Source of the DNA: Solidesulfovibrio magneticus RS-1
GTDB lineage: Bacteria > Desulfobacterota > Desulfovibrionia > Desulfovibrionales > Desulfovibrionaceae
Assembly: GCF_000010665.1 (NCBI RefSeq)
Contig: NC_012796.1
Span: 2,571,501 to 2,635,500 of the forward strand
Reading direction: 5' to 3'
DNA length: 64,000 nt
This document shows, one piece after another, positions 40,255 to 56,047 of this stretch; position 1 is the first letter of the stretch, and each line of letters starts with the position of its first letter. The notes under the pieces were generated by a model. The model had not been told where the DNA came from and did no database searches. It saw only the letters and a program-made list of their open reading frames with translations. Made by a program: the position numbers and the translations under genes.

Positions 40255-40340
40255 GTCAAAATTGACCGTTGCACATTTAGGCCCGTTGCTCTACCAATCG
40301 CGGCCGAAACGATGCGAAAAGCTCTTAAGGAGAGGCGAAC

Positions 40341-41291
40341 GTGAGCGCAACCGAAAACCGCCTGGCCGTGCTGTTCCCCGGCCAGGGTTCCCAGGAAAAA
40401 GGCATGGGCCGCGAACTGGCCGAGGCTTCGGCCGAGGCGGCGCAGCTGTGGTTGATGGCGGAAAAGGCCTCGGGCCTCCCCCTGCGTGAAATCTACTGGG
40501 AGGGCGACGAAGCGGCCATGGCCGATACCCGCTCTCTCCAGCCCGCCATGACCGCCGTGACCCTGGGCCTGTGGTTTCATCTCAAGTCGAAACTGACCCC
40601 GCTGGTCGGGTTTGTCGGGCACAGCCTTGGCGAATACGCCGCCCTGGCCGCCTCGGGCATGGTCGAGATTCCGGCCGTGTTCGAACTGACCAGCCTTCGC
40701 GGCCGGCTCATGGCCGAAGCCGCAGGCGGCGACGGCCGGATGGCCGCCGTGCTCAAGCTCTCTCTTGACGACATCGAGGACGTGGTGCGCCAGGCGGGCG
40801 AGTCGACCGGCAAGATCCTTTTGGTCGCCAACTACAACTCCCCGGGGCAGTACGTCATTTCCGGCGAAGCCGCGGCTGTGGAGGCCGCCGCCGCCCTGGT
40901 CAAGGACAAGAAGGGCCGGGCTGTGCCCCTGGCCGTCAGCGGCGCGTTTCACAGCCCGCTCATGGCCGAGCCGGCCGCCGAACTGGAAAAGGCCCTGCGC
41001 CGGGCCGGGCTGCGCGCCCCGTCGGTCGCTCCGGTCTTCCACAACGTCACCGGCCGCCCCGAGCCCGACGCAGCCAAGGCGCTTGACCTCATGTGCCGCC
41101 AGATGACCTCGCAGGTGCGCTGGATCGACACTCTGGCCGCCCTGTGGCAGGCCGGCGCGCGCACCTTTGTGGAGCTTGGCCCCAAGGGCGTGCTGACCAA
41201 GCTCCTTTCCGCCAACCTCAAGGAATGCGGCGAACCTTATACGGGCGTTTCCGTGGCCAAACCTGCCGACGCCGCCGCTTTGGAGGCCTGA
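40341..41291 (+). CDS. fabD: Malonyl-CoA:ACP transacylase
   Basis: This 316-residue enzyme loads malonyl onto acyl carrier protein for fatty-acid synthesis. The N-terminal LFPGQGSQEKGMGREL, the nucleophile S95 in GHSLGEYAALAA, the LRGRLM arginine loop and the His in AVSGAFHSPLM are all canonical. The start is GTG, preceded by AAGGAG. It is followed four bases later by argS, a loose operon. No other fab genes are in the window. Confidence 0.95.
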   Translation: MSATENRLAVLFPGQGSQEKGMGRELAEASAEAAQLWLMAEKASGLPLREIYWEGDEAAMADTRSLQPAMTAVTLGLWFHLKSKLTPLVGFVGHSLGEYAALAASGMVEIPAVFELTSLRGRLMAEAAGGDGRMAAVLKLSLDDIEDVVRQAGESTGKILLVANYNSPGQYVISGEAAAVEAAAALVKDKKGRAVPLAVSGAFHSPLMAEPAAELEKALRRAGLRAPSVAPVFHNVTGRPEPDAAKALDLMCRQMTSQVRWIDTLAALWQAGARTFVELGPKGVLTKLLSANLKECGEPYTGVSVAKPADAAALEA

Positions 41292-41295
41292 TTCC

Positions 41296-42951
41296 ATGCG
41301 CGCCACCGCCATTTTGCGCGATCTTCTGGCCAGCGCCCTGGAAAACCAGGGCATTGCCTGGCCGGTCAAGACCACCATTGAGCCGCCCCGGGACAAGGCC
41401 CACGGCGATCTGGCCACCAACGTGGCCATGATGGCCTCCAAGGCGGCCAAGAAGCCGCCCCGGGAACTGGCCGAGTCCCTGCGCCAGGCCCTGGCCGCCG
41501 ATCCCCGGCTGGCCTCGGTGGAGGTCGCCGGCCCGGGCTTTCTCAATGTCGCCTTCACGCCGGCCTTCTGGCAGGAGACGGTTTGCGACGTGGCCAAGGC
41601 CGGCGACGGCTACGGCCTGCTCGACATCGGCCAGGGCGTGAAAATACAGGTGGAGTTTGTCTCGGCCAACCCCACCGGGCCGCTGCATATCGGCCACGGA
41701 CGCGGCGCGGCCGTGGGCGACAGCCTGGCCCGGGTGCTTCGGGCCGCCGGCTTCACCGTGGAGACCGAATACTACATCAACGATGCCGGCCGCCAGATGC
41801 GCATCCTGGGCATGTCCATCCTCTATCGCTACAAGGAGCTCATCGGCGAGCCCGTGACCGAGCCCGAGGACTACTACCGGGGCGAGTACGTCATTCCCCT
41901 GGCCCAGGATATGATCGACGCCCACGGCCGCAAGCTGCTGGAGATGCCCGAGGCCGAAGCCACCGACATCTGCCGGCTGCACGGCGAACGCGAGATCCTG
42001 GCCGGCATCAAAAAGGACCTGGAAGACTTCCGGGTCCACCACGACGTCTGGTTCCCGGAATCGACCCTGCTCGCGGCCGGGGCCGTGGACGCCGCCTTCA
42101 ATGAACTACGCGACAAAAAACTGGCCTACGACCAGGACGGGGCCTTCTGGTTCGCCTCCACCGCCTTTGGCGACGACAAGGACCGGGTGCTGGTCAAGTC
42201 CGGCGGCGAACTGACCTACTTCGCCTCGGACATCGCCTACCACGCCGACAAGTTCCGCCGGGGCTTCGACGTGGTGGTGGACATCTGGGGCGCCGACCAC
42301 CACGGCTACGTGCCGCGCATGAAGGCCTGCGTTTCGGCTCTTGGGCGCGACCCCGAGGCCAGCCTCAAGGTCATTTTGGTGCAGCTTGTCAACCTGCTCA
42401 AGGGCGGTGAGCAGATCGCCATGTCCACCCGGGCCGGCAAGTTCGAAACCCTGGCCGATGTGGTCAAGGAAGTCGGGGCCGACTCCGCCCGCTTCATGTT
42501 CCTGTCACGCAAATCCGACAGCCACCTGGACTTTGACCTCGACGCGGTCAAGGAGAAGTCCATGGACAACCCGGTCTACTACGTCCAGTACGCCCACGCC
42601 CGGGTGCGCTCGCTTTTTGCCAAGGCCCAGGAGCGCGGTCAGGCCGTGGCCGAGACCTCGCCGGAACTCCTGGCCTTACTCACCACCGACGAGGACCTGG
42701 AGCTGCTTAAGCTGCTGGAGCAATATCCCGACACCGTGGCCGCCGCCGCCCGGACTTTTTCGCCCCATCTGGTAAGCTTTTACCTGCGCGATCTGGCCGG
42801 ACGCCTGCACCGCTACTACACCGTCAACCCGGTCCTGACCGCCGGGAGCGACGACCTGGCCTCGGCCCGGCTGCGGCTCCTCGACGCCGTGGCCCAGACG
42901 ATCAAAAACGGCCTGGACCTGCTTGGCGTCAGTGCGCCAGACAAGATGTAA
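41296..42951 (+). CDS. argS: Arginyl-tRNA synthetase
   Basis: This class I synthetase of 551 residues charges tRNA-Arg. HIGH appears in SANPTGPLHIGHGRGAAVGD. The KMSKS position is replaced by MSTRAGKFETL, usual for ArgRS. The N-terminal additional domain (EPPRDKAHGDLATNVAMMAS) recognises the tRNA D-loop, and the C-terminal DALR domain contains YYVQYAHARVRSLFAKA. Downstream lies a SPOR protein after 55 bp. Confidence 0.97.
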   Translation: MRATAILRDLLASALENQGIAWPVKTTIEPPRDKAHGDLATNVAMMASKAAKKPPRELAESLRQALAADPRLASVEVAGPGFLNVAFTPAFWQETVCDVAKAGDGYGLLDIGQGVKIQVEFVSANPTGPLHIGHGRGAAVGDSLARVLRAAGFTVETEYYINDAGRQMRILGMSILYRYKELIGEPVTEPEDYYRGEYVIPLAQDMIDAHGRKLLEMPEAEATDICRLHGEREILAGIKKDLEDFRVHHDVWFPESTLLAAGAVDAAFNELRDKKLAYDQDGAFWFASTAFGDDKDRVLVKSGGELTYFASDIAYHADKFRRGFDVVVDIWGADHHGYVPRMKACVSALGRDPEASLKVILVQLVNLLKGGEQIAMSTRAGKFETLADVVKEVGADSARFMFLSRKSDSHLDFDLDAVKEKSMDNPVYYVQYAHARVRSLFAKAQERGQAVAETSPELLALLTTDEDLELLKLLEQYPDTVAAAARTFSPHLVSFYLRDLAGRLHRYYTVNPVLTAGSDDLASARLRLLDAVAQTIKNGLDLLGVSAPDKM

Positions 42952-43006
42952 CCGACTTGACATTGCCTCGTGATCGGCCATTGTCGACAGACGAGGAACC
43001 TTGCCC

Positions 43007-43795
43007 ATGAAGCTTTTAAGCCGCCTAAACGCCACCCGCGAAAACGGGGGGCCGCGAAAATTCACCTTTGAGATCAGCATGTCCGGCGTGGTTTCCGTCG
43101 GCATCGTGGTCGTGCTTGGCATGTGCTGGGTGTTTATTCTCGGCATTCTGGTCGGCCGGGGCTACAAGCCCGAGACGGCCGTGCCCCAGATCGCCCAGAT
43201 GATGCCGACCACCGAAGCCAAGCTGCCCGACGGCGAAGCCAAGGCCCCGCCTTCGGTGCTCAAGCCCGAGGATCTCCAGTTCATGGAGGATGTCCACAAC
43301 CAGCCAGGAGCCGACGCCGCCGACGCCGCGCCGACCAAGACTCCGGCCGATCCCAAGAAACAGGCCGCAGCCGCCAAGCCCCACGACCAGACCGAAGTGC
43401 GTCCCGTGGGCGGCGCTGCCGCCGCAGCTACGCCCCGTACGATCACGTCGCCGGCTGCTTCGGCCGCGCCCCGGGCGGTGGCCGTCGTTCCCCCGCCGGC
43501 CAAGCCGGCCGACACGCCCAAGGTCGATCCCAAATCGACCTTCGACAAAAAGGCCGGGATGCGCTATACCGCCACCTATCAGGTGGCCTCGTTCCCGGGC
43601 AAAGCCCAGGCCGAAACCCACGTCAAGGATCTGGCGAAAAAGGGCGTGACCGCTTCGGTGCGCGAGGCCAAGTCCGGCAATAACGTGGTATTTCGGGTCA
43701 CTATCCAGGTGAAGGGGTCGGATGCGGAAATATCCGACTCCCTCAAGAAGAGCGGCGAAAAAGGCGCTATACTTCTCGGCAAAAAACCCTTATGA
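43007..43795 (+). CDS. SPOR-domain membrane protein
   Basis: This 262-residue single-pass inner-membrane protein has a cytoplasmic N-terminus, one helix (VVSVGIVVVLGMCWVFILG; about residues 27-48), a low-complexity Ala/Pro/Lys linker, and a C-terminal SPOR domain (about 180-260; YTATYQVASFPGKAQAETHV, VTASVREAKSGNNVVFRV). It resembles FtsN-like and DedD-like proteins that bind septal peptidoglycan, although the catalytic FtsN core helix cannot be asserted. GAGGAA lies before the ATG at 43007. It follows argS, as SPOR proteins do in several Desulfovibrio-like genomes. Confidence 0.9.
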   Translation: MKLLSRLNATRENGGPRKFTFEISMSGVVSVGIVVVLGMCWVFILGILVGRGYKPETAVPQIAQMMPTTEAKLPDGEAKAPPSVLKPEDLQFMEDVHNQPGADAADAAPTKTPADPKKQAAAAKPHDQTEVRPVGGAAAAATPRTITSPAASAAPRAVAVVPPPAKPADTPKVDPKSTFDKKAGMRYTATYQVASFPGKAQAETHVKDLAKKGVTASVREAKSGNNVVFRVTIQVKGSDAEISDSLKKSGEKGAILLGKKPL

Positions 43796-43841
43796 GGATT
43801 CCCCGCTTTCGCGGCAAATCAGAGTGTAAAGAGGACTGCCC

Positions 43842-44396
43842 ATGCTTCCAGGCTCTTCCGTTCCCACCAAGGCGTTTTTCACCAAGGGCGTCGGCCGCCA
43901 CAAGAACAAGCTGCAGTCGTTCGAGCTGGCGCTTCGCGAGGCTGGCATCGAAAAGCTGAACTTGGTTTACGTGTCGAGCATTTATCCGCCCCATTGCCAG
44001 CTTCTGACCCCCGAAGAGGGCGTGAAGCTCCTTAACCCCGGGCAGATCACCTTCTGCGTCATGGCCAGAAACGCCACCGACGAAAAGAACCGCCTGGTCG
44101 GCTCCGCCGTGGGCATGGCCTTCCCGGCCGACAAGTCGAACTACGGCTACATCTCCGAGCACACCGGCTTTGGCGCGGAAGAGCAGGAGATAGGCGATTT
44201 CGCCGAGGATTTGGCCTCCACCATGCTGGCCACCACCCTGGGCATCGACTTCGACCCCGAGACCGCCTACGACGAGCGCCGCGAGACCTATCTCATGAGC
44301 GGCAAGATCATCGACTCGGCTTCCATGCCCTGCGTCACCACTGGTGAAACGGGCATGTGGACCACGACCATCTCGGCGGTGGTTTTCATCCCCTAA
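43842..44396 (+). CDS. Pyruvoyl-dependent arginine decarboxylase
   Basis: The enzyme converts arginine to agmatine and CO2 with a covalently bound pyruvoyl group made by self-cleavage. The expected Ser-Ser cleavage site is S45-S46 in LVYVSSIYPP, with the preceding FFTKGVGRHKNKLQSFELAL typical of the family. Length 184 is right. The fragment MSGKIIDSASMPCVTTGE is characteristic of bacterial PvlArgDC. It lies in the same direction as nth and the spermidine-synthase-like gene, hinting at a polyamine link. It begins 46 bp after the SPOR gene. Confidence 0.95.
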   Translation: MLPGSSVPTKAFFTKGVGRHKNKLQSFELALREAGIEKLNLVYVSSIYPPHCQLLTPEEGVKLLNPGQITFCVMARNATDEKNRLVGSAVGMAFPADKSNYGYISEHTGFGAEEQEIGDFAEDLASTMLATTLGIDFDPETAYDERRETYLMSGKIIDSASMPCVTTGETGMWTTTISAVVFIP

Positions 44397-44461
44397 GCCC
44401 TCATGGGACTTTTCGGGGCAACCCTCGCCTGCCTGCCGGCCGCGTCCATCCGGGGCTCCCG

Positions 44462-45097
44462 ATGATGGACGCGGCTTTGCGTGCTGCGGTCATCCATGAC
44501 CGCCTGCGCCCGCTTTATCCCGACCCCAAGCCGGCCCTGGATCACCAAAACGCCTACGAGCTGTTGGTGGCCACGGTGCTGGCCGCCCAGTGCACCGACG
44601 CCCGGGTCAACACCGTCACGCCGGAATTCTTTCGCCGCTGGCCCGACCCCGCCGCCCTGGCCAAGGCCAACATCGGCGAGGTCGAAGCCGTGGTCCATCC
44701 CACCGGTTTTTTCCGGCAAAAGACCAAAAACCTCGTGACCACGGGCAAGATTCTGGTCGAGCGCCACAACGGCCGGATACCGGCCACCATGGCCGAGCTG
44801 ACCGCTTTGCCCGGCGTGGCCCGCAAGACCGCCAACATCGTCCTGTCCAACGCCCTGGGCATCAACGTCGGCATCGCCGTGGACACCCACGTGCGCCGCC
44901 TGTCCTTTCGCCTGGGCTTGACGACGTCGGAAAACCCGGTCATCATTGAAAAAGATTTAATGCCCCTGTTTGCCCCCGAGGTTTACGGCGAGATCAACCA
45001 CCTCCTCGTCCTTTTTGGACGCGAGGTGTGCAAGGCTCGCCGGCCCCAGTGCGGCGACTGCGTGCTCAACGACGTCTGCCCCAAACACGGGGTGTGA
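44462..45097 (+). CDS. nth: Endonuclease III (DNA glycosylase/AP lyase)
   Basis: This 211-residue base-excision repair glycosylase removes oxidised pyrimidines. The helix-hairpin-helix LTALPGVARKTANIVLSNAL with the catalytic Lys, Asp in GIAVDTHVRRLSFRLGL, and the C-terminal [4Fe-4S] loop CKARRPQCGDCVLNDVC (C-x6-C-x2-C-x5-C) are complete. The start ATG at 44462 or 44465 is not strongly marked by a ribosome site; a longer frame from 44357 overlaps the decarboxylase gene. Confidence 0.96.
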   Translation: MMDAALRAAVIHDRLRPLYPDPKPALDHQNAYELLVATVLAAQCTDARVNTVTPEFFRRWPDPAALAKANIGEVEAVVHPTGFFRQKTKNLVTTGKILVERHNGRIPATMAELTALPGVARKTANIVLSNALGINVGIAVDTHVRRLSFRLGLTTSENPVIIEKDLMPLFAPEVYGEINHLLVLFGREVCKARRPQCGDCVLNDVCPKHGV

Positions 45098-45166
45098 CGT
45101 CTTTACGCCATGCCCGCCGGGGCGCCGGCCCGCCGGTCCCGCAGCGGCGCGCTCCCGAGGTCAGCC

Positions 45167-48040
45167 ATGCCGGCCACTGCCGCCTCCCCCCATGCCACCC
45201 GCGCCGACCGACTGGTCCTCGCCGCCGTCTTTCTCGTTTCCGGCGCGTCGGCGCTGCTGTTTGAAACGCTCTGGCTCCACCTGGCCGGGCTGACCTTTGG
45301 CGTCAGCGTCTATGCCAGCGCGCTCGTCCTTTCGAGTTTCATGGGCGGACTGGCCCTGGGCAATGGGCTGATTTCCCGCTTTGGCCGCGACATCACCGAT
45401 CCGGTGCGGTTCTACGCCGCCATGGAAGTCCTGGTCGGCCTGTGGGGGTTGATGCTCGTCCTGGGCTTTCCCTGGCTGACGGTCTGGCTCGGGGCAGTGC
45501 TCCATCCTGCCTTGGACAAGCCGATGCTTCTTAATACCCTGCGCTTTTCCTTCTCGTTTTTGCTCTTCCTGCTGCCGGCCACGGCCATGGGCGCCACCCT
45601 GCCGCTTCTGGTCAAGGCCCTGGCCCGTCGGCCCGGCGAATTTGGCAAGGCCCTGGGCCGACTGTACGGCATCAACACCCTGGGGGCCTGCCTGGGGGCG
45701 CTGCTCGGTGAGATGGTCCTCATCGCCCCTCTGGGCCTTTCCGGCACGGGGCTGGTGGCCTGCGGCTTAAACCTCCTGGCCGCCGGGGGAGCCTTGGCCA
45801 TCGCCCGGCGTTTCCGGGACGAGCCGGTCCGGGATGACGAGGCGGCCAAGACTGCTCCCGTGCGCCTAAGCCCTCGGGCCAAGCGGCTGCTGGCGGCCGG
45901 CTTTTGCTGCGGCGCGGCCTTTTTGGCCCTGGAAGTCGTCTGGATGCGCTTTTTGCAGCTCTTTGTGCGCTCCACGAGCCTGGCCTTTGCCGTCATGCTG
46001 GCCGTGATCCTGGCCGGCATCGGCCTTGGCGGCATGTTCGCCGGCTGGTGGCTACGGCGCGAAGCCGACGGTCGGCGCATCGCCGCGCCCCTGGCCCTGC
46101 TTACGGCCGCTGCCGCCCTGGCCTCGTTTCGGCTTTTTGAAGCCGCCTCGGGCGTCACCATCGAAGGCTACCAGTCCCTGGACTGGCGCTATGTGGCCGT
46201 GCTGTCGGTCACCCTCATGTTCCCGTCAGCCTTTCTCTCGGGCATCCTTTTCACGGCCCTGGGCGAGGCCTTCCACCGCGAGGTCGGCGACCGGGCGCGC
46301 TCGGCCGGCCTCATTGCCATGGCCAATACCCTCGGGGCCATGGCCGGCCCGCTTCTCGGCGGCTTTGTCCTCATCCCGGCCCTGGGCATGGAAAAGGCCC
46401 TGTTTGCCCTGTGCGCCCTGTATCTCGCGCCGGCCCTGCTGTGCGCCGGCGGCAGCGCGCCCTGGCCGTCCTTTCGTACCGGCCGCTTCCTGCAGATCGC
46501 AACCGCCGCCTTTACCCTGTTCCTGGCCGCCTTTCCCTTCGGCGTCATGCGCCAGTACCTGAACAAGGCCTGCGTCGATTTCCTCAAGGACGGCGAAATC
46601 CTGGTGCGCACCGTGGAAGGCGTCACCGGCACGCTTCAATACCTGCGCAAGGACTACCTCGGCCAGCCGCTCTACTACCGCCTCGTCACCGACGGTTACT
46701 CCATGTCTTCCACCGACCGGGGCGCGCGGCGCTACATGAAGCTGTTCGCCTACTTCCCCCAGGCCGTGCTGCCCAATCCCAAGTCCGCCCTGCTCATCTG
46801 CTTCGGCACCGGCTCCACGGCCTCGGCCCTGGTCGAGAACAAGGGCCTGGAACGCATCGACGTGGTGGACATCTCCCGTGACGTCCTGGCCGGCAGCCAG
46901 GTGGTCCATCCCCAACCCGGGACCAATCCCCTGGACGACCCGCGTGTGCGCGCCCATGTCGAGGACGGCCGCTTCTACCTGCTGGCCAGCCAGCGCAAGT
47001 ACGACATCATCACGGCCGAGCCGCCGCCGCCCATGATGGCCGGCGTGGTCAACCTCTATTCCCGCGAATACTTCGCGCTCATGCGCGACCGCTTAAACGA
47101 CGGCGGCATGGTCACCTATTGGCTGCCCGTGTTCGAAATCTCGCCCGGCGACGCCAAAGCCATCCTCAAGGCCTTCAGCGACGTGTTCGAAAACGCTTCG
47201 CTGTGGACCGGTGACAACTTCAACTGGATGATGGTGGGCGTCAAAAAGCCCAAGGGCCCCAAACCGGCGGCTGATTTCCCCACGCCCTGGAAGACCGCGC
47301 CCACAGCCGAAGGCCTGCGCCAGATCGCCGTGGAAGAGCCGGCCCAGCTCGGGGCGCTATTCATGCTCGACGGCCAGGACATGGCCGCCTACCTCGGCGA
47401 CGCCAAGCCGCTCACCGACAACTACCCCAAGCGCCTCACCGGCTATCCCGAGTCGCCCCAGGCCCAGCAGCGCGACGTGGCCGCCCACAACGCGCTCATG
47501 GACGCCAACGCCTCCAAGGAACGCTTCGCGACCTCCAAGCAGGCCGCATTGCTCCTGCCCCAGTCCGTCAAGGCCGAGGCCGAAGCCTGGTTCGAAACCC
47601 AGCAAATCATCAACACCTACCTCAACAACATGATCCCGCCGCCGCCGCCCCTGCCGGCCGTCAACTACGTGCTGGCAGGCACGGACCTCACCGTGCTGCC
47701 GCTGTGGCTCATGAAGTCCGACCCCAAAAAGGTGGACATCGTGGAAAGGGCCCTGGCCGCCGGCATGCCGCCCTCGGCCGAGACCGAATTCCAACTCGGC
47801 GTCAAAGCCCTGTCCGACCGCAACTACCTGCTGGCCGAAGCCAAGCTCAAGCGCGCCCAGGACCTCGGCTACCCCAGCAACCTGGCCCCGGCCCGGGTCT
47901 ACATCCTGTGCATGGCCGGGCTGCTCTCCCAGGCCGAAGACCTGGCCAGACAAGCCTTCAAGGGCGGCCAGGCCAGCGCCTCGGCCCGAGCCTACATGGA
48001 ATGGCTGGCCCAGACGTTCGGGTTCACGAGTCCGTTTTAG
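45167..48040 (+). CDS. Membrane-fused spermidine-synthase-like protein
   Basis: This long protein of 957 residues has an N-terminal membrane region of about 12 to 14 helices (residues 1-460; VLAAVFLVSGASALLFETLW as the first), then a spermidine-synthase-like Rossmann domain (about 475-720; LLICFGTGSTASALVENKGL, ERIDVVDISRDVL, EDGRFYLLASQRKYDIITAE) and a C-terminal alpha-helical part with TPR-like repeats. The synthase catalytic Asp after the fourth strand is replaced by AEPP in IITAEPPPP, so classical aminopropyl transfer is uncertain. The start ATG has GAGG six bases upstream. It is the last gene of the fabD run and overlaps the end of the OLD gene by 17 bp. Confidence 0.88.
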   Translation: MPATAASPHATRADRLVLAAVFLVSGASALLFETLWLHLAGLTFGVSVYASALVLSSFMGGLALGNGLISRFGRDITDPVRFYAAMEVLVGLWGLMLVLGFPWLTVWLGAVLHPALDKPMLLNTLRFSFSFLLFLLPATAMGATLPLLVKALARRPGEFGKALGRLYGINTLGACLGALLGEMVLIAPLGLSGTGLVACGLNLLAAGGALAIARRFRDEPVRDDEAAKTAPVRLSPRAKRLLAAGFCCGAAFLALEVVWMRFLQLFVRSTSLAFAVMLAVILAGIGLGGMFAGWWLRREADGRRIAAPLALLTAAAALASFRLFEAASGVTIEGYQSLDWRYVAVLSVTLMFPSAFLSGILFTALGEAFHREVGDRARSAGLIAMANTLGAMAGPLLGGFVLIPALGMEKALFALCALYLAPALLCAGGSAPWPSFRTGRFLQIATAAFTLFLAAFPFGVMRQYLNKACVDFLKDGEILVRTVEGVTGTLQYLRKDYLGQPLYYRLVTDGYSMSSTDRGARRYMKLFAYFPQAVLPNPKSALLICFGTGSTASALVENKGLERIDVVDISRDVLAGSQVVHPQPGTNPLDDPRVRAHVEDGRFYLLASQRKYDIITAEPPPPMMAGVVNLYSREYFALMRDRLNDGGMVTYWLPVFEISPGDAKAILKAFSDVFENASLWTGDNFNWMMVGVKKPKGPKPAADFPTPWKTAPTAEGLRQIAVEEPAQLGALFMLDGQDMAAYLGDAKPLTDNYPKRLTGYPESPQAQQRDVAAHNALMDANASKERFATSKQAALLLPQSVKAEAEAWFETQQIINTYLNNMIPPPPPLPAVNYVLAGTDLTVLPLWLMKSDPKKVDIVERALAAGMPPSAETEFQLGVKALSDRNYLLAEAKLKRAQDLGYPSNLAPARVYILCMAGLLSQAEDLARQAFKGGQASASARAYMEWLAQTFGFTSPF

Positions 48041-48370
48041 GGGAAGGCTGGAAATATTCTTTTAAAGCACACTCAACAATCCGTCGCCATTGCGCAGGGA
48101 CACCATTCCATTCTTCACCCCAAGGCTGAACAGCAACATAGGCTTTATATGGTTTTTCGGAATCAGAGACAGGGATACCAAGCACATTTTCGATATTCTC
48201 TTCCAACATAATCCTTTTTGATTCATCACCAAGAGCGTGCAAAATTGGACCATTCATCTGCTCCGCCTTAAGTGTGCTCAAGTCTCTATCATGTATTACA
48301 AATATATCTATATTCAATGGCGAGAGATAATTTAAAAGCGAGATAATAGCTCCCTTACCTCGTGCCTTAA
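48024..48370 (-). pseudogene. C-terminal fragment of the interrupted OLD-family nuclease
   Basis: Read right to left from the insertion boundary, the frame gives KARGKGAIISLLNYLSPLNI and then DIFVIHDRDLSTLKAEQMNG, the TOPRIM end of an OLD nuclease with the DxD metal pair. It ends at 48024, inside the tail of the convergent spermidine-synthase-like gene. It has no start or ribosome site of its own; a TTG at 48317 begins the open frame. The nucleotides are AT-rich, unlike neighbours. See the other fragment at 49713-51302. Confidence 0.85.
48367..48370. repeat. Left target-site duplication TTAA
   Basis: TTAA directly abuts the left end of the insertion sequence. The matching copy is at 49819-49822. 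One copy retained after excision restores the interrupted reading frame. Confidence 0.85.
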
Positions 48371-49818
48371 CAGCGTGTTGAAAAACTCCGCCAAGTGACC
48401 GAGAATCCAGCCATCGGGGTTCCGGAGGTGATCTGATGGGGCTTGGCCGTCAGGGTGATCAGCAGGGGACGATGTATCTGGCCTGGGATGAGATCCCTCG
48501 GTCTCGTGGGCACGCTTTTTACGATCGTCTCCAGCAGATTCTCCGGAAAGCCGGCTTCGATGGTTTCGCCGAGAAGCTGTGCAAGCCCTTCTATTCCGAC
48601 AAGGGGCGTCCCTCCATTCCGCCTGGCCGGTATTTTCGGATGCACCTCGTGGGGTATTTCGAGGGCATCGACAGCGAGCGCGGCATTGAGTGGCGCTGCG
48701 CTGATTCGCTTTCCCTCCGGAATTTTCTCCAGCTTTCGCCCAAGGAGTCTGTGCCGGATCATTCCTCGCTCAGCCGGACACGGTCCCGTCTGCCACTGGC
48801 GACCCACCAAGAGGTTTTCACCTGGGTTCTCAAGCTGCTCAGCAAGGATGGCTTGGTCCTTGGAGGCCGCATTGGCGTGGACGCTTCGACCATGGAGGCC
48901 AACGCGGCGCTCAAAACCATCGTGCGCCGGGACACGAGTGAGAGCTACCGCAAGATGCTCCTGCGCATGGCCAAGGAGAGCGGCATCGACTCTCCGATAG
49001 ATGAGGATCTGGCTCGCATGGACCGCAAGCGCGTCGGCAAGACGCTTTCGAACAAGGACTGGCGGTCACCGGTCGATCCCGAGGCGAAGATCGCCAAGAT
49101 GAAGGATGGCCGAACGCATCTGGCGTACAAGCCCGAGCACGCGGTGGACCTGGACACCGGCGCGGTGGTGGCGGCCGAGGTGCATGAAGCGGACAAAGGG
49201 GACACCTCGACTCTGCAAACGACGCTGAAAGCCGCTCAAGAAAGTCTGCGGCGGGTCACTTCCACACCGCCATGCCCGGACGACCCTGCGGAACTGGTCG
49301 CGGATAAAGGCTATTTCTCCCGGGATGTCCTCAAGGTTCTGGACGGTGGACCATGGCGGACGAGAATCGCCGAACCCAAACGCAACGGTCTGAACTCCTG
49401 GCGTGGCGACCAAGAGGCGCGACGCGCCGTGTACAACAACCGAATCCGGATATCCTCGATGGTCGGGAAGGCCATGGGAAAACAGCGGACGGAACTGGTC
49501 GAAAGAAGCTTCGAGCATACGCTGGACCGGTGCGGCGGCATGCGCCGGGTCTGGCTCAGAGGACGAGAGAACATCCGGAAACGCTATCTGGTCCATGTGG
49601 CTGGTTTCAATCTCGGCCTGCTGATGCGGGTCAAGACCGGCCATGGCACCCCCAGGGGCTGGGCCAGTGCCTGGCTTGCGCTCATTTGGCCTGACCAGCA
49701 TCCCTCAATGGCCTATTTGGCCATCGTCATGGTGGTCAAGGGACGATGCTGCGGGATCATCCCCATCGCCATCATCTGCGGGGGAGAATAGCCGGAAACA
49801 GCTTTTTGCAACGGCCTG
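48371..49818 (+). mobile_element. Insertion sequence, IS1182-like (IS5 superfamily), TTAA target duplication
   Basis: The element is 1448 bp and has imperfect terminal inverted repeats: CAGCGTGTTGAAAAACTCC at 48371 and CAGGCCGTTGCAAAAAGCTG reading inward from 49818 (CAGnnnGTTGnAAAA shared). TTAA occurs on both sides (48367-48370 and 49819-49822). It carries one transposase gene on the plus strand. It is GC-rich compared with the gene it interrupts. The family assignment rests on the transposase layout and TSD size. Confidence 0.88.
48436..49791 (+). CDS. Transposase, DDE superfamily
   Basis: The 451-residue transposase has an N-terminal DUF772/InsH-like domain (FYSDKGRPSIPPGRYFRMHL through the VPDHSSLSRTRSRL region), then an RNase-H-fold catalytic core with Asp in GVDASTMEANA, Asp in LVADKGYFSRDV and Glu in LVERSFEHTLDRCGG, the three DDE residues. 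A basic linker (MDRKRVGKTLSNKDWRSP) separates the first two. The start has an excellent ribosome site, GGAGGTGATCTG-ATG. The C-terminal 30 residues (MVVKGRCCGIIPIAIICGGE) run close to the right terminus. The gene looks intact, so the element may still move. Confidence 0.93.
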   Translation: MGLGRQGDQQGTMYLAWDEIPRSRGHAFYDRLQQILRKAGFDGFAEKLCKPFYSDKGRPSIPPGRYFRMHLVGYFEGIDSERGIEWRCADSLSLRNFLQLSPKESVPDHSSLSRTRSRLPLATHQEVFTWVLKLLSKDGLVLGGRIGVDASTMEANAALKTIVRRDTSESYRKMLLRMAKESGIDSPIDEDLARMDRKRVGKTLSNKDWRSPVDPEAKIAKMKDGRTHLAYKPEHAVDLDTGAVVAAEVHEADKGDTSTLQTTLKAAQESLRRVTSTPPCPDDPAELVADKGYFSRDVLKVLDGGPWRTRIAEPKRNGLNSWRGDQEARRAVYNNRIRISSMVGKAMGKQRTELVERSFEHTLDRCGGMRRVWLRGRENIRKRYLVHVAGFNLGLLMRVKTGHGTPRGWASAWLALIWPDQHPSMAYLAIVMVVKGRCCGIIPIAIICGGE

Positions 49819-51302
49819 TTAACTACCTGAACGTCTGCATATACTCGCGCTTTTACATCCGCTGGCAACCGTGAAAAAGTTTCTCTAAGGACAATATCCT
49901 CAGTATCGCCTTCAACAATTATAACTTTCTTCGCAAAAAAAACCCTTGATATGTAATCATCCATTTTTATTAGCATTTTAACATAAGTTCTGTCTTTGTC
50001 GACAAGATTTAAATAAGCATCAGACACATTAAATGGAACAACACACACAGCACCATCGACAACAGACATTCTATTAAGCACCTGACATGGCTTTCTTGAA
50101 AGATCAATCATATATGGAGAATGAGATGTACAAATTATCTGAGAACTTCCTATTGAAAGGTCATATATTGTATCTCGCATTTGATTTGCAGCATTCGGGT
50201 GCAAATATATTTCAGGTTCTTCAAATCCAATAATCAAAGGGCGAGACAGCCCTTTTCTTTTATGTATCCATTCATGACGGAACTTCAACAAAGCAAATAT
50301 TGCAGACCTAATCATTCCTGTCCCTTGATATGCAACAGGCGTTTTAACGTTACTCGACATATTAATTGTAAAAACAGGAACCAACGACTTGTCTGCGTCA
50401 TTTAAACTTGCTGTTGCATGCAATTTTGATTCAGGAAACACACTATTTATAACACCGTTCAAATCATCCATCATTCTGCTAAATTCAGACTCCTGATCTT
50501 CTGGATTTAATTCTTCTGCCAACAAAGCAAGATACTTTACGGCCTTTCCATAATTGTCGGACGCCTCCCGAATCTCTCGAAACAATTCGTTCATAAATGT
50601 TGCCAATTCTCCAGATTTTTGATCAAGGGCAGCAGCGCTGTGCTCAGCTGGTATTTTTATATATAAAGGCAACTTACTAATCACCACCGAGTGAATGCCA
50701 CCAGGATTATTAACCCACTCTGACACACCAGAATCGTCAACAATCCAGATGTCATTAATTTCTTCAAGCTTTTCGAGTTGTGCTTTTGATAATTTTTTAT
50801 CCAACTCTGGAAACAATTCTTCAACCAATTCTGAGTCAATTCCACGGTCTATCAAATCCCTGGCCTTAACTATGTTCTCAAATTCACTTTTCTTTACTCT
50901 GCTATAACACTTCATCTCTCTAATGCAACTTTTTGAAGACTTAGAAAAAGACTTTCTAAATACTACAGATAGGCCGCTATCATTTTCATTCTTTGTTTCA
51001 TATCGGATAAGCCGTCCCTTAAACCCTCTCCAACTATTTGCTTCTACTGGCAAATTCCTAAATTCCGCTTCAATAGAGCACTCAGTGCACTTATCAACTA
51101 TTTCCTCTGCACAAACTTCGCCCTCACAATTGTAATCAAATTCTGAAAGAGATTCACTCACTGACAGCAGACATCCTATTGCAGCTAGGACAGTACTTTT
51201 ACCGACATTGTTTGGACCAATCAAAAAAGTTGTATCACCAAATAGAATTGTAGCTTGCTTAATTCTGCGAAAATTACGTAGACACAATGAGTGCAGTCGC
51301 AT
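49713..51302 (-). pseudogene. OLD-family ATP-dependent endonuclease, N-terminal and central part, cut by IS
   Basis: The intact part is an AAA/ABC-like ATPase: start MRLHSLCLRNFRRIKQATIL, Walker A IGPNNVGKST, the signature-like YQGTGMIRSAIFALL, Walker B LIIGFEEPEIYLHPN and SHSPYMIDL. The TOPRIM domain begins at KKVIIVEGDTEDIVL and breaks at VYADVQVV where the element lies; the last 35 residues (from NRPLQKAVSGYS) are read from IS sequence. OLD proteins act in DNA repair or phage defence. Restored length would be 608 residues. The ATG at 51302 has GAGGTGAT upstream. No UvrD-like GajB partner is adjacent, so it is a stand-alone (class 1-like) OLD. The DNA is AT-rich, a sign of transfer. Confidence 0.88.
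49819..49822. repeat. Right target-site duplication TTAA
   Basis: Second copy of the 4-bp target, immediately beyond the right end of the insertion sequence; pairs with 48367-48370. Confidence 0.85.
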
Positions 51303-51327
51303 AGATATCACCTCATATTTTTTTGCA

Positions 51328-51357
51328 AGCATACATATAGACTATAGTCTAAATCAA
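51328..51357 (-). promoter_or_regulatory. Promoter of the OLD gene with 14-bp palindrome in its spacer
   Basis: On the minus strand TTGATT (51352-51357) and TATGCT (51328-51333) are spaced by 18 bp and lie 26 bp before the ATG at 51302. The spacer holds the perfect palindrome TAGACTATAGTCTA (51338-51351), placed exactly where a repressor would block the polymerase. No dedicated repressor gene is seen beside it. Confidence 0.6.
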
Positions 51358-51467
51358 CTTGTTTTTCCTATAAATAGAAGCAAGCTATCGGGACAGCGCC
51401 CACCTATAGCTTTTAACTATTTGAAATACATCAAATTATGACTATTTAAAAAAAAAGGAGCAAATAA

Positions 51468-52073
51468 ATGCCAACTTCCCTTGATTGCCGTGGTCTGGCC
51501 TGTCCCGGACCGGTCCTTCGCTGCAAGGAATGCGTCGAGAAAGACGCCCCCGATACCATTGCCGTCACCGTGGACAATGAAGCGGCCCGGGAAAACGTCA
51601 CCCGGTTTCTGACCATGCGCGGCTACGCCGTTACCGTGGCCGAGGCCGGAGACGGCGTCTACGTCCTGACCGCAACGGCGGGAGCCGCTCCCGTCGCTGC
51701 GCCCGATGCCACGCCGGCCGCCAAGGCCGAAGCCGGCAGCCGCACCGTCGTTTTTATCACCGCCGACGTCATCGGTCGGGGCGACGACACGCTTGGGGCC
51801 AAGCTCATGGTCAATTTCGTCGGCACCCTGCCGGAGCTGGGCGAACGCCTGTGGCGCATCGTCCTGGTCAACGGCGGCGTGCGCCTAGCCGTGGCCGGCA
51901 GTCCGGTTCTCGACAAGCTCAAGGCCATGGAACAGGCCGGCGTGTCCATTCTGGTGTGCGGCACCTGCCTGGACTTTTACGGCATTTTGGACAAGAAAGA
52001 GGTCGGCCAGACCACCAACATGCTCGATGTGGTGACCAGTCTCGATCTGGCCGATAAAATTGTACAAATCTGA
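51468..52073 (+). CDS. yedF: YedF-type selenium-metabolism sulfurtransferase-like protein
   Basis: Two domains in 201 residues: an N-terminal TusA/SirA domain (LDCRGLACPGPVLRCKE, with active-site Cys in CPGP) and, after an Ala/Pro linker, a DsrE-like domain (TVVFITADVIGRGDDTLG, ILVCGTCLDFYGILDKKEVG). This TusA-DsrE fusion is the protein found next to selenophosphate genes in anaerobes and named YedF; the exact reaction is not proven. The ATG has AAGGAG before it. No selD or selU is in the window. It immediately follows the AT-rich foreign segment and precedes a PAS kinase on the same strand. Confidence 0.92.
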   Translation: MPTSLDCRGLACPGPVLRCKECVEKDAPDTIAVTVDNEAARENVTRFLTMRGYAVTVAEAGDGVYVLTATAGAAPVAAPDATPAAKAEAGSRTVVFITADVIGRGDDTLGAKLMVNFVGTLPELGERLWRIVLVNGGVRLAVAGSPVLDKLKAMEQAGVSILVCGTCLDFYGILDKKEVGQTTNMLDVVTSLDLADKIVQI

Positions 52074-52192
52074 CGCGCCGACTTTCTACGGGCCGCTTGC
52101 CCGGCGGCCCGCTTTGCTTGCGCGGAGCAACGCCTTTCTGGCCCAGCTCCGCCAGTAGGACAGCCAGCGTGTCAGCACTTCAGGATGTACCC

Positions 52193-53329
52193 ATGGCTGA
52201 CGCGCCATTGCCCACGTTTTTCTTGCCGGCCGAACGCCTTAAACAGCCGGCCATCGACGCCATTGCCCGAGATATTGCCCACTCTCCTTCAGCTTTGACC
52301 TTGGGAGCGGTCCCGCTGGCCGTAGTCATCGTCAACGACACCCGCCAGATCGTTTACGCCAACGCCCGGTTTCTGGCCCTGGCCGGAAAAGCCGAGGCCA
52401 GCCAGGTCATCGGCCAGCGCATCGGCGAGGCTCTGGGCTGCGAGCATGTGGACGACAATATCGGCGGCTGCGGCACCACCCGGTTTTGCCAGTATTGCGG
52501 CGCGGCCCAGGCTGTGGTCAAAAGCCTCGAAGGCGAAAGCGGCACCCAGGAATGTGCCATCAACCGGGTTTCTGCCTCGACCCTGGACGCGCTCAATCTG
52601 CAGGTCTGGGCTGTGCCCATGGAGATCGAAGGGCACAAGCTGGTGCTCAACTCCGTGTTGGACATCGCCCACGAAAAGGCCCTGCGGGGCTTTGAACGCA
52701 TCTTTTTCCACGACATCCTAAACGCCGTCACCGGCATCAAGGGCATAAGCGACCTGCTTTCCCTGGAACTGCCCAAGAACTATCTGCGAGAATTGGAACT
52801 GCTGCGCCGCTCCATCGACGATTTACAGGACATCGTCGACACCCAGCGCGATTTTCTGGCTGTCGAGGCCAAGGAATACCGGCACAACTACACACGCCTG
52901 TATACCATCGACATTCTCAAGTACCTGGCTTCCTACTGCCAATCCTTCAACCATGGCGGCAAACGCCGCATCGATGTCGCGCCCCAGGCGGCAGCGCAAA
53001 TTTTCTCCTCGGACCTGCGCATCATCCAGCGCATCATGGTCAACATGGTCAAAAACGCCCTGGAAGCATCCGCCCCCGGAAAATCCGTGACGCTTGGCGC
53101 GGACGTAACCGATCGGGGAGCTGTGCGGCTGTGGGTCGCCAACCCGGGCGCAATGCCTGAAGAGGTGCAACTGCGGCTGTTCGAGAAGGGCTTCTCCACC
53201 AAGGGCGAAGGCCGTGGGCTTGGGACCTACAGCATGCGCCTTTTTGCCCGCCAGTGCCTGGGCGGCGAGATAAGCTTCACTTCCACGCCCGAGGACGGCA
53301 CGCGCTTTGCCCTCGAACTGCCGGCCTGA
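52193..53329 (+). CDS. PAS histidine kinase with conserved Cys cluster
   Basis: This soluble 378-residue kinase has a PAS domain (about 35-160) holding five cysteines (C83, C93, C99, C102, C121; the core is GGCGTTRFCQYCGAAQA). The cluster is placed to bind a metal or Fe-S cofactor or to form disulfides. The kinase part has the phosphoacceptor H173 in IFFHDILNAVTGIKG, and ATPase motifs NMVKNALEASAPG and FEKGFSTKGEGRGLGTYSM. It may be a redox-sensing kinase; no response regulator is adjacent. Start ATG at 52193 has AGGA at seven bases; a GTG at 52169 is an alternative. It lies 120 bp after yedF and 4 bp before an rRNA pseudouridine synthase gene. Confidence 0.87.
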   Translation: MADAPLPTFFLPAERLKQPAIDAIARDIAHSPSALTLGAVPLAVVIVNDTRQIVYANARFLALAGKAEASQVIGQRIGEALGCEHVDDNIGGCGTTRFCQYCGAAQAVVKSLEGESGTQECAINRVSASTLDALNLQVWAVPMEIEGHKLVLNSVLDIAHEKALRGFERIFFHDILNAVTGIKGISDLLSLELPKNYLRELELLRRSIDDLQDIVDTQRDFLAVEAKEYRHNYTRLYTIDILKYLASYCQSFNHGGKRRIDVAPQAAAQIFSSDLRIIQRIMVNMVKNALEASAPGKSVTLGADVTDRGAVRLWVANPGAMPEEVQLRLFEKGFSTKGEGRGLGTYSMRLFARQCLGGEISFTSTPEDGTRFALELPA

Positions 53330-53333
53330 CGCC

Positions 53334-54302
53334 ATGGATGCGACGGATTCGCGCCTCACGCGCATCAACAAGGCCCTGGCTTCGGCTGGGGTGTGTTCCA
53401 GGCGTCATGCCGACGACCTGATTGCCGCCGGACGGGTGACGGTCAACGGGGCCGTGGTCACCGAGGCCGGGCTTCGCATCGACCCTGCCCGCGACGCCCT
53501 GGCCGTGGATGGCGCGCCGGTCAACTTGGCCCCGGAAATCCCGATAACCCTGGCGCTGCATAAAAAGCCGGGCGTGGTGACCACGGCCAGCGACCCCGAA
53601 GGCCGGCCCACGGTCTTTGACGGCCTGCCCGAGGTGTGGCGCGGCAAGCGCCTTTTCCCGGTGGGGCGGCTGGACTTTTTTTCCGAAGGTTTGCTTTTGC
53701 TCACCACCGACGGCGAGCTGGCCCTGCGCCTGACCCATCCGCGCTGGCACGTACCCAAGCGTTACCGGGTCACCGTGCGCGGCCAGGTGACGCCGGACAT
53801 GCTCGGGACCATGGCTCGGGGCATGCGTCTGGCCGAGGGCGAGCGCCTGGCTCCGGTGGCCGCCCGAGTGGTCGAAGGGCCGGCCCAGGACCGATCGATT
53901 CTTGAAATGGAGCTGCATCAAGGCGTCAATCGCCAGATCCGGCGCATGTGCCGCGATTTGGGCCTGACCGTGCTGCGTCTGGCCCGGGTCAGCCAGGGGC
54001 CGGTGGCGCTGGGCGACTTGCCGCTCGGGGCCTGCCGCGAACTGACGCCGGCCGAACTGGCCACCCTGCGCCAGTCGGTGGGTTTGGACGATGCGGATGT
54101 CGCACCAGCCCCGCCCAGGCCCCGGCCGACAGCCGAAGGCGACACAAAACGCCCGCCGCGTCCAGCCCGTCCGCCCCAGGCCGGCGGCAAACGGCCGGCA
54201 ACCAAGGCCAGCGGCGGCGAGACCGAGACAGGACCGCGCCGTGACGGGCAGTCTGCGCCGCGCCGCGACCGCCCTGCCCGACGTCGCGGCCAATCTTCGT
54301 AA
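53334..54302 (+). CDS. RsuA/RluB-family rRNA pseudouridine synthase
   Basis: The 322-residue protein has an S4 RNA-binding domain (RINKALASAGVCSRRHADDL) and a catalytic domain with the Asp in GRLDFFSEGLLLLTTDGELA (the usual GRLDxxTxGLL, here with Ser for Thr), PKRYRVTVRG and the conserved EGVNRQIRRM-type RNA motif (LHQGVNRQIRRMCRDLGLTV). A long basic, Pro/Arg-rich tail of about 60 residues follows. The ATG lies four bases after the kinase stop. It modifies ribosomal RNA; which uridine is not determined by sequence. A strong terminator follows. Confidence 0.93.
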   Translation: MDATDSRLTRINKALASAGVCSRRHADDLIAAGRVTVNGAVVTEAGLRIDPARDALAVDGAPVNLAPEIPITLALHKKPGVVTTASDPEGRPTVFDGLPEVWRGKRLFPVGRLDFFSEGLLLLTTDGELALRLTHPRWHVPKRYRVTVRGQVTPDMLGTMARGMRLAEGERLAPVAARVVEGPAQDRSILEMELHQGVNRQIRRMCRDLGLTVLRLARVSQGPVALGDLPLGACRELTPAELATLRQSVGLDDADVAPAPPRPRPTAEGDTKRPPRPARPPQAGGKRPATKASGGETETGPRRDGQSAPRRDRPARRRGQSS

Positions 54303-54344
54303 TTTCCACGCCACGGTTTTGTCGAAGAAGCCTGGCGACCATGC

Positions 54345-54385
54345 ATAAAAAACCCGCCCGAGCTTCAAGCCCGGGCGGGTTTTTG
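54345..54385. terminator. Bidirectional rho-independent terminator
   Basis: AACCCGCCCG (54351-54360) pairs with CGGGCGGGTT (54372-54381), flanked by A-runs on the left and TTTTT on the right. It serves the pseudouridine synthase transcript and the convergent hydrolase transcript, and lies between their ends. Confidence 0.9.
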
Positions 54386-54428
54386 CGTTATCGGCAACGG
54401 CCGAACGCGCGCCATGGATTGGCCGGCC

Positions 54429-55292
54429 TCAAGCATCGGGCAAGCCGGACAGGAAGGCGGCCACGGCCTGCTGGGCCTGCCCTCTGTGGCTGAAGATGGC
54501 GGCGTGTTCGCCGCCGTTCAGAGCGGCCAGACGCGCCCCGGGGATGCGCTCGGCCAGTTGCTTGCCGTGAGCGGCAAAGGCCACGTGGGGATCGGCCGTG
54601 CCGTGGACGACCAGGGTCGGCACGGCGACGTCCTCCAGGGGATAGTCGCGGCTGCGGGTCACGGCCACGTCGTTGACGGTCCCGGCCAGCCGCTCTCCCA
54701 GACGGGACCGTGTCTGGGCCGAGAGTTCCGCGAAAAGGGCCAAGGCCTCGGGATCGTTCATGACGGCCCGGCGCGAGGCCGGATCGCCAAAGCCGCGCTT
54801 GACCGCTTGTTCGGGAGAGGCGGCTTTGGGTCGCAACATCGCCCCAAGTCGGGGGAACCGGGCCGCCAGACGCAGCATATGCCAAGCCAGGGGCAAGCGT
54901 TCCGTGATGCGCCCGGAGCAGGTGGAAACCAGCACCAAACCGCGCGTCAGGCGCGGATGGCCAAGCGCCAGATGCACGGCGCAAGGGCCGCCGCCCGAGA
55001 CGGCCATGACCGCCGCCGGCCCGACGTCCAGATGCTCCAGGAGCGCGGCGCACAGGTCGGCCTGGGTCTCGGGGGCCTCCCGGCCGCCGAGGGGTGTGCC
55101 CAGGTAGCCCGGACGCGACACGGCCAGGACGCGCCAACCCTCGGGGGCCAGCAGCCGGCCCAAGATCGTGCTTTGGTCATGGCCGCCCATGGCTCCGTGC
55201 AGACACAACAGCGGTGGACCGTCGCCGTAAGCGGCGTACTCCACCGGCCCCAGGGACGTCTCGACGCGACAGGGGGTCGATCCGGCGTTCAT
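54429..55292 (-). CDS. Alpha/beta hydrolase
   Basis: This 287-residue soluble hydrolase has the oxyanion LCLHGAMGGHDQ motif, a nucleophile elbow AVMAVSGGGPCAVH (S99), the acid residue region around VVHGTADPHVAF (Asp) and the His in LNGGEHAAIFSH. It belongs to the Abhydrolase_1/6 group; the natural substrate is unknown. The ATG overlaps the stop of the DUF2087 gene as ATGA, so the pair is translated together. It ends at a bidirectional terminator. Confidence 0.9.
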   Translation of the reverse strand: MNAGSTPCRVETSLGPVEYAAYGDGPPLLCLHGAMGGHDQSTILGRLLAPEGWRVLAVSRPGYLGTPLGGREAPETQADLCAALLEHLDVGPAAVMAVSGGGPCAVHLALGHPRLTRGLVLVSTCSGRITERLPLAWHMLRLAARFPRLGAMLRPKAASPEQAVKRGFGDPASRRAVMNDPEALALFAELSAQTRSRLGERLAGTVNDVAVTRSRDYPLEDVAVPTLVVHGTADPHVAFAAHGKQLAERIPGARLAALNGGEHAAIFSHRGQAQQAVAAFLSGLPDA

Positions 55293-55858
55293 CGCGGCGT
55301 CTCCCCGGCTTCTCCCGGCCGTCCCAGGCGGCGAATGAGTTCCCGGCCGGTGGCCTCGGGCCGGACTTCCACCCGCCGGTACTCCCGGCAATCCGGGGTT
55401 CGGGCCAGAAGGCCGCCGTCGCACAGCATCCGGCGCAGCAGCGCGGCGTCGCCAAAGGTGTGGCCGGCCTCCAGGCAGGCGTTAACCATCTTTTCCGTCA
55501 TGATCTGCCGGGCCGGCAAGCGCGACCAGAGCAACCACAAGATCACTTGCTGTTCGCTCCACTTGGAGGGCCAGCGCACCAAGCGGCCGTCGGCGTCGAA
55601 ATGACGCAGGAGCCGGCGCAGCCGGGCGTAATCCACGGGCTGCGGCGGCGCGGCCGGGGCGGCAGGCGCGTCAAGGCGGGCTTGCGCCTTGGCGTTGGCC
55701 CGGAAGTGCTGGAAATTGCGGCAGCCGGCGGCCCGGGCCAGGATGTTGAGCATCTCGACATGGCCGGGCGTAGCCTCAGCATCAGGAAGATTGCCGCGCA
55801 CTGCCTTGGCCAGGGCGGAAATGTCGTCCACGGAAAAAGGAATACGTTCGCGTGACAT
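55289..55858 (-). CDS. DUF2087 protein with N-terminal glyoxalase-associated-like domain
   Basis: The 189-residue protein has two parts. Residues about 8-55 resemble the small domain at the ends of glyoxalase-related proteins (HVEMLNILARAAGCRNFQHF). Residues 75-165 fit DUF2087: YARLRRLLRHFDADGRLVRW, PSKWSEQQVILWLLWSRL, EAGHTFGDAALLRRMLCDG, GLLARTPDC. DUF2087 is often seen fused to winged-helix repressors, but the DNA-binding part is missing here. Function unknown; co-translation with the hydrolase suggests a shared task. Confidence 0.82.
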   Translation of the reverse strand: MSRERIPFSVDDISALAKAVRGNLPDAEATPGHVEMLNILARAAGCRNFQHFRANAKAQARLDAPAAPAAPPQPVDYARLRRLLRHFDADGRLVRWPSKWSEQQVILWLLWSRLPARQIMTEKMVNACLEAGHTFGDAALLRRMLCDGGLLARTPDCREYRRVEVRPEATGRELIRRLGRPGEAGETPR

Positions 55859-56047
55859 CGCTTATCCTTGCAAGCGTGCCTGTCCGGGAAGGAGGATGTC
55901 GGTGGTCGCCGTCTTCCGACGCGGCACGGGATAAGGTGTCGGTGCGGAATGGATGCGTTGGCAGGTTTAGCACCCCTTGCGGGGCGGCGACGCCTGGGTG
56001 AACTGCCGACCGGTTCGGGGCTTACGACAGCCGGCCCGGCCTTGGCA

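What the first reader, a model, noticed from the sequence alone, without database searches (positions are those of the whole stretch)
48024..51302. OLD-family nuclease gene split by an IS with TTAA duplication; virtual excision restores 608 residues
Removing 48371-49818 and one TTAA joins VYADVQVV to KARGKGAIISLL in frame, giving a continuous OLD protein with ATPase, TOPRIM and DxD parts. The combined coding length (1827 bases) is divisible by three. The IS transposase and the gene's remaining halves look intact, so the disruption is probably recent and perhaps reversible. OLD proteins can be phage-defence or repair factors, so the loss of function would be a strain-specific event.
Basis: seen in the sequence. 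Interest (0 to 1): 0.7.

Follow-up and report, generated by a model that had tools for sequence, protein, structure and literature searches.

The report
Phage-defence gene broken by jumping DNA
A foreign, probably phage-defence gene in a magnet-making sulfate-reducing bacterium was recently cut in two by one of the bacterium's own jumping DNA elements; the event is real but of an ordinary kind.

Summary
A 1448-base insertion sequence (IS, 48371-49818) between two TTAA copies splits an OLD-family gene (ABC ATPase plus TOPRIM). Across the empty site 608 codons read without a stop. Independent support: 65 of 65 uninterrupted homologues align without a gap over the join, and the KARGK motif it recreates is nearly invariant. 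The IS is one of 13 full-length copies in this genome, each with an open transposase frame; 11 of 13 keep a perfect 4-base duplication. Contig sizes point to Solidesulfovibrio magneticus RS-1 (recalled); a published RS-1 study describes a 13-copy IS found in magnetosome genes of laboratory mutants, which I take to be this element. The OLD gene is an AT-rich gain: its neighbours lie side by side in 12 of 13 other same-genus genomes, the 13th being broken there. TTAA is about ten times denser in the gene than in a genome sample, enough to explain the hit without special targeting. Loss of nuclease function is inferred, since the DxD motif lies beyond the break; reversibility is unsupported. A new example of a known kind of event.

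The parts
49823..51302 (-). 5' part of the OLD gene: residues 1-494, ABC ATPase (Walker A GPNNVGKS, FEEPE) and TOPRIM up to EGDTE 464-468
48024..48370 (-). 3' part of the OLD gene: residues 495-608, with KARGK and the HDRD (DxD) motif 520-523
48371..49818 (+). insertion sequence, 1448 b, one of 13 full copies in the genome
48436..49791 (+). transposase, 451 aa, DUF772 plus DDE_Tnp_1
48367..48370 (.). TTAA target duplication, left
49819..49822 (.). TTAA target duplication, right
48371..48385 (+). left terminal inverted repeat (11 of 15 bases equal to the right one)
   Evidence: sequence
49804..49818 (-). right terminal inverted repeat
   Evidence: sequence
49713..51302 (-). remnant frame that runs into the IS: 529 aa (494 native plus 35 from the IS)
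   Evidence: (frame 49713-51332), arithmetic
48044..51467 (.). gained AT-rich segment (about 2 kb without the IS) in place of a short spacer; outer limits approximate
45110..48040 (+). core neighbour, 976 aa, convergent with the OLD gene
51468..52073 (+). core neighbour, 201 aa (YedF-like; name recalled)

Best explanation
A single-gene (Class 1-like) OLD ATPase-nuclease gene of foreign, AT-rich origin was acquired between two core genes. Later a resident DDE insertion sequence, which duplicates 4 bases and prefers sites with a central TA, inserted into it. Shown here: the structure, the in-frame empty site, the family, the gain relative to same-genus genomes, the near-identity of the IS copies. 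Inferred: that the insertion is recent; that the gene was hit because it is rich in target sites; that the nuclease is lost because the DxD motif is cut off; that the intact protein served in phage defence.
For: In-frame join of 608 aa; 65 of 65 homologues ungapped over the join; AAA_15 and OLD-like_TOPRIM, PADLOC Old 1e-64, PDB 6p74 8.4e-18; 13 full IS copies, 11 perfect duplications, all 13 transposase frames open and 0-2 base differences within each of two groups; neighbours adjacent in 12 of 13 other same-genus genomes; 36-40% GC in 500-base windows of the gene against 64% in a 200-kb sample, TTAA 9.3 against 0.94 per kb; a 13-copy IS seen to have mobilised in RS-1 mutants.
Against: No IS-free allele of the gene itself was found. 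Function of this OLD group was not tested, and one Class 1 OLD works without Toprim. Flank GC of the 13 copies is borderline below NTAN sites (P 0.04-0.08), though not below YTAR or TTAA sites, so a wider AT bias than the site itself is not excluded. The identity of the published IS with this one rests on copy number, place and family, not on sequence.
Confidence: 0.88

Rival explanations
1. The interruption does not silence the gene: the 529-aa remnant, with the complete ABC ATPase and no working TOPRIM, still acts as an ATPase-driven effector.
For: The remnant frame is open through the ATPase. In YbjD the Toprim domain was dispensable and the ATPase domain essential for anti-phage phenotypes (PMC13261556).
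Against: P2 Old needs both activities in vivo (PMC7049728, abstract). All five acidic TOPRIM residues are kept in 65 of 65 homologues, which speaks for selection on the nuclease. The cut falls inside the TOPRIM fold, not between domains.
Confidence: 0.08
2. Selection: the acquired OLD nuclease was costly to the cell and the insertion was favoured because it removed the cost.
For: P2 Old kills recBC-deficient E. coli (PMC10568477 section 2); this genome has no RecC match and no RecB match over the cut-off. Inactivation of defence genes by IS is documented (PMC10359306).
Against: An AddAB-like pair (1234 and 1078 aa frames near C2:3814474-3820595) may stand in for RecBCD; YbjD toxicity is independent of RecBC; target-site density alone explains the hit. 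No population data.
Confidence: 0.2
3. Assembly artefact: a repeat copy was placed here wrongly.
For: 13 near-identical copies make such errors possible; 2 of 13 copies have flanks that differ by one base.
Against: This copy has matching TTAA on both sides, and its flanks joined read one continuous gene; wrongly joined flanks would not.
Confidence: 0.02

Closest known systems
Class 1 OLD nucleases (P2 Old, Thermus scotoductus OLD, E. coli YbjD)
   Same: N-terminal ABC ATPase and C-terminal TOPRIM; gene without a dedicated partner; best PADLOC hit Old, best PDB hit 6p74
   Different: Low identity (26% to P2 Old over 54% of the protein); belongs to its own group of about 600-aa homologues; here broken by an IS
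Gabija GajA (Class 2) and AriA of PARIS
   Same: Shared ATPase and, for GajA, TOPRIM region
   Different: Weaker scores; no helicase or AriB-like partner beside the gene and no general partner beside homologues
RS-1 13-copy transposon with similarity to IS5-family transposases (PMC4287615)
   Same: 13 copies, one inside the magnetosome island, IS5/IS1182-like transposase
   Different: The passages read give no sequence, so identity is inferred
IS1 and IS10 insertions into defence genes (PMC10359306)
   Same: A resident IS breaks an immunity gene and leaves a short duplication
   Different: There IS1 and IS10 in CRISPR-Cas and 12 other defence clusters; here another IS and a single OLD gene

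Membership tests
[quoted passage not shown]
   AAA_15 1-399, 1.3e-39; G29, N31, N32, G34, K35 and F360-E364 kept in all homologues with letters there
OLD family nuclease | C-terminal TOPRIM with conserved acidic residues | tested here: met
   Only in the joined reading: OLD-like_TOPRIM 455-523, 4.3e-15; E464, D466, E468, D521, D523 in 65 of 65. In the window as it stands the domain is cut
Class 1 OLD | Single gene, no UvrD-like helicase (GajB) or reverse transcriptase partner | tested here: met
   Neighbours are core genes without such a hit; around 66 homologue loci no family other than OLD itself recurs in more than 5. Clustering only; not every neighbour was scanned against profiles
Class 1 OLD | Shorter than Class 2 by about 50 aa, lacking the helical insert in TOPRIM | tested here: inconclusive
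   608 aa, longer than 6p74 (528 aa); no structure was predicted
Class 1 OLD | ATPase and DNA- or RNA-cleaving activity, phage interference | not testable with these tools
   needs bench work
Gabija GajA | Adjacent GajB helicase | tested here: not met
   for the window; for homologues
Insertion sequence (DDE type) | Open transposase frame, terminal inverted repeats, target duplication, several copies | tested here: met
IS1182 family | NCBIfam IS1182 transposase score over the curated cut-off | tested here: not met
   NF033551 162.4 bits against 270; the IS5 models score lower still and also miss their cut-offs

The most novel reading that the evidence does not exclude
The broken gene is still active: capture by the IS made a natural TOPRIM-less OLD ATPase (529 aa) that keeps an ATPase-dependent defence or regulatory effect, as Toprim-deleted YbjD does, so that transposition remodelled the effector instead of killing it.
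Probability: 0.08. Interest if true: 0.5.

Novelty: new member of a known kind. Interest (0 to 1): 0.27.

Why it matters
It is a clean case of gain and then interruption of a probable defence gene in a genetically tractable magnetotactic bacterium. It illustrates how an IS with an AT-containing target site, in a GC-rich genome, tends to land in AT-rich acquired genes, so that site preference alone can prune foreign genes. It also points to a widespread group of single-gene OLD proteins, found on plasmids, in viral contigs and in a filamentous phage, whose function is open. The event itself is of a kind already described.

Tried and rejected
IS-free allele: none. One search covered 59 genomes, this one included; single-sequence scans of genome and viral contigs gave no relative; an alignment query then gave 60 and 5 loci.

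Targeting of foreign DNA beyond the site preference: flank GC of 13 copies lies far below random positions (P at most 0.0004 in 20,000 draws, four flank sizes), borderline below NTAN sites (P 0.04-0.08), not below YTAR (P 0.33-0.43) or TTAA sites (P 0.32-0.37), against a 200-kb sample of 20 stretches, one of which holds an IS copy. YTAR fits 7 of the 11 perfect duplications and NTAN 10 of 11, so the fair control lies between; not established.

Other copies in defence genes: 10 open-frame pieces at the edges of 8 of the other 12 copies gave no PADLOC match, and in Pfam only one piece matched (IS66 transposase). 4 of 12 copies had no piece of 100 aa or more, and 7 of the 17 pieces listed were not scanned.

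Upstream palindrome as an operator: 7 of 66 upstream regions have a perfect palindrome of 12 bases or more, shuffles give 5.8 on average; rejected. Dedicated partner gene: none general. tRNA near by: none in 40000-56000. Promoter-like and terminator-like sites: at chance level. Toxic cost through lack of RecBCD: inconclusive.

Rows dropped: one search took 66 loci (60 genome-contig, 4 of 5 viral, 2 annotated records; L144 was left out); L116 gave no closed frame, so 65 homologues entered. L129 and L124 are incomplete. Duplicates were kept: L082 and L141 are one contig by length and range; L037, L085 and L087, L038 and L143, and L100 and L114 look identical in the printed stretch.
Full report
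What is there. On the minus strand, 51302 to 48024 encode an OLD-family protein interrupted by a 1448-base insertion sequence (48371-49818) with TTAA on both sides. Removing the IS and one TTAA in a script leaves 1827 bases, a frame of 608 residues and a stop. The joined protein matches Pfam AAA_15 (1-399) and OLD-like_TOPRIM (455-523); PADLOC Old is best at 1e-64, AriA (1.9e-44) and GajA (5.5e-29) follow; the best solved structure is an OLD endonuclease, 6p74.

Is the join right? The strongest test is from genes that were not interrupted. A Raoultella plasmid gene (49% identity) and a Vibrio filamentous phage gene (44%) align over the full length. An alignment query found 60 genome-contig loci and 5 viral loci; 65 homologues, duplicates included, were aligned. 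All 65 are ungapped over residues 480-515, and the motif at the join, KARGK (495-499), is conserved at 0.91, 0.94, 0.97, 1.00 and 1.00. The break lies inside the TOPRIM domain, between EGDTE (464-468) and HDRD (520-523); E464, D466, E468, D521 and D523 are present in 65 of 65.

The IS. It occurs 13 times at full length, 12 on the 5.25-Mb contig and one on a 58.7-kb contig, plus 4 partial or diverged matches. All 13 encode an uninterrupted 451-aa transposase. They form two groups of 5 and 8 copies, 56-58 bases apart and 0-2 bases apart within groups; the window copy is in the group of 5 and differs by one base from each of the other four. The 11 perfect duplications are TTAA (5), TTAC (2), TTAG, CTAA, ATAG and TGTA; in the other two copies the flanks differ by one base. 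Of 13 other same-genus genomes 10 have some match, nearly full-length only in two, at 92% and 88%. The transposase is of the IS5/IS1182 kind, below the curated IS1182 and IS5 cut-offs.

The host and the activity of the IS. The genome has 5,315,620 bases in 3 contigs, among them 5,248,049 and 58,704. From memory these are the sizes of Solidesulfovibrio (Desulfovibrio) magneticus RS-1. A study of non-magnetic RS-1 mutants (PMC4287615, passages read) reports a transposon with similarity to IS5-family transposases, with 13 copies in the genome, one of them in the magnetosome island, which appears to have mobilised during mutagenesis and selection and was found in mamB and tauE. The count of 13, and a copy at 4655332-4656779 inside the island bounds given there (4607747-4689778), fit the element here. 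I take them to be the same, so the IS is probably active; the passages give no IS sequence.

The OLD gene is a late arrival. GC in 500-base windows of the gene is 36-40%, against 64% in a random 200-kb sample. In 12 of 13 other same-genus genomes the two neighbours lie 117-277 bases apart (distances taken from the match tables); in the 13th (G012) both sit at contig ends. Against five of these genomes, homology stops at window 48038-48043 and resumes at 51455-51477, so about 2 kb (without the IS) stands in place of a short spacer. Two of the 13 have weak partial OLD-like matches (8.4e-9 and 1.8e-4) and none a close copy. The nearest homologues found, 52%, are in a Pseudodesulfovibrio metagenome-assembled genome and in Psychromonas hadalis (L080, L082).

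Why the IS hit this gene. TTAA occurs 9.3 times per kb in the gene and 0.94 per kb in the sample; NTAN 65 against 17. IS flanks are AT-rich compared with random positions, borderline against NTAN sites, and not different from YTAR or TTAA sites. Site preference is thus a sufficient cause. I found no sign of a preference for defence genes in the part examined: 10 pieces at the edges of 8 of the other 12 copies.

How it most likely worked. By homology the intact protein is an ATP-regulated nuclease of the Class 1 kind: a single gene with no general partner. A homologue sits beside a CBASS operon on a Raoultella plasmid (cyclase, E1-E2, JAB and SAVED effector), another in a Vibrio filamentous phage, and one in Vibrio fluminensis (L130) next to a secretin gene. 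A review (PMC10568477, abstract and one section read) says that as of 2023 P2 Old was the only Class 1 protein shown to defend against a phage. A 2026 paper (PMC13261556, first of two parts read) reports anti-phage phenotypes for induced YbjD and cites a Vibrio cholerae OLD. Defence is likely but not shown for this group.

What the insertion does. The frame from 51302 runs into the IS and stops at 49713, giving 529 aa with the ATPase complete and the TOPRIM cut; the 3' part could start only at a TTG (97 aa) among the frames listed. I infer loss of the nuclease. Against full loss: YbjD without Toprim kept its effect. For loss: P2 Old needs both activities (PMC7049728, abstract). Precise excision would restore the frame, but nothing here shows it, and it is recalled as rare for such elements.

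Cost as a driver. P2 Old is lethal to recBC-deficient cells. This genome has no RecC match and no RecB match over the cut-off, but two long adjacent frames look like AddAB (name recalled). The idea of a costly gene removed by the IS stays open.

What is known already. IS insertions that inactivate defence genes are described, with IS1 and IS10 in 12 defence clusters besides CRISPR-Cas (PMC10359306, one section and passages read). The present case adds another IS and a single OLD gene. In seven literature searches no listed title or shown start of an abstract described this insertion; that is no proof that it is unreported. Other papers opened: PMC12111858 (abstract and one section), PMC12137116 (passages), PMC6210102 (passages), PMC10790759 (passages).

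Noticed in passing
L038 5001-6794, L143 948-2780, L130 6001-7794: OLD homologues as cargo of Vibrio filamentous phages: in phage vB_Vipa71 beside a PLD-like protein (PF13091), in L130 next to a secretin gene; L143 shows the same frame sizes as L038.
   Followed up: partly
L099 7868-8899; likewise L100, L114, L132: In 4 of 66 homologue loci a protein of 340-343 aa follows the OLD gene by 5-74 bases on the same strand; the L099 one has no Pfam or PADLOC match, but its IAIECKFD stretch looks to me like a PD-(D/E)xK nuclease motif: a possible two-gene variant.
   Followed up: partly
L037 179-4491: CBASS operon (cyclase, E1-E2, JAB, 2TM-SAVED effector) directly upstream of the OLD homologue on a conjugative Raoultella plasmid; L085 and L087 share the SAVED-type neighbour.
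   Followed up: partly
G000:C2:3067538-3069989, 4738308-4740759, 2051423-2053562: Three repeated pairs of a UvrD-like helicase frame (663-668 aa) with a PDDEXK_1 nuclease frame (314, 314 and 192 aa) in the genome.
   Followed up: no
L011 and L012 (G000:C2:3318384 and 1591843): Two of the five near-identical IS copies have flanking 4-mers that differ by one base (CTAA/TTAA and ATAA/ATAG): point change or recombination between copies.
   Followed up: no
window 51338-51351: Perfect 14-base palindrome 35 bases upstream of the OLD start; palindromes there are not commoner in homologues than in shuffles.
   Followed up: yes
G000:C2:1622568-1622771: A second OLD-like TOPRIM match in the genome, in an open frame of 416 aa.
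   Followed up: no
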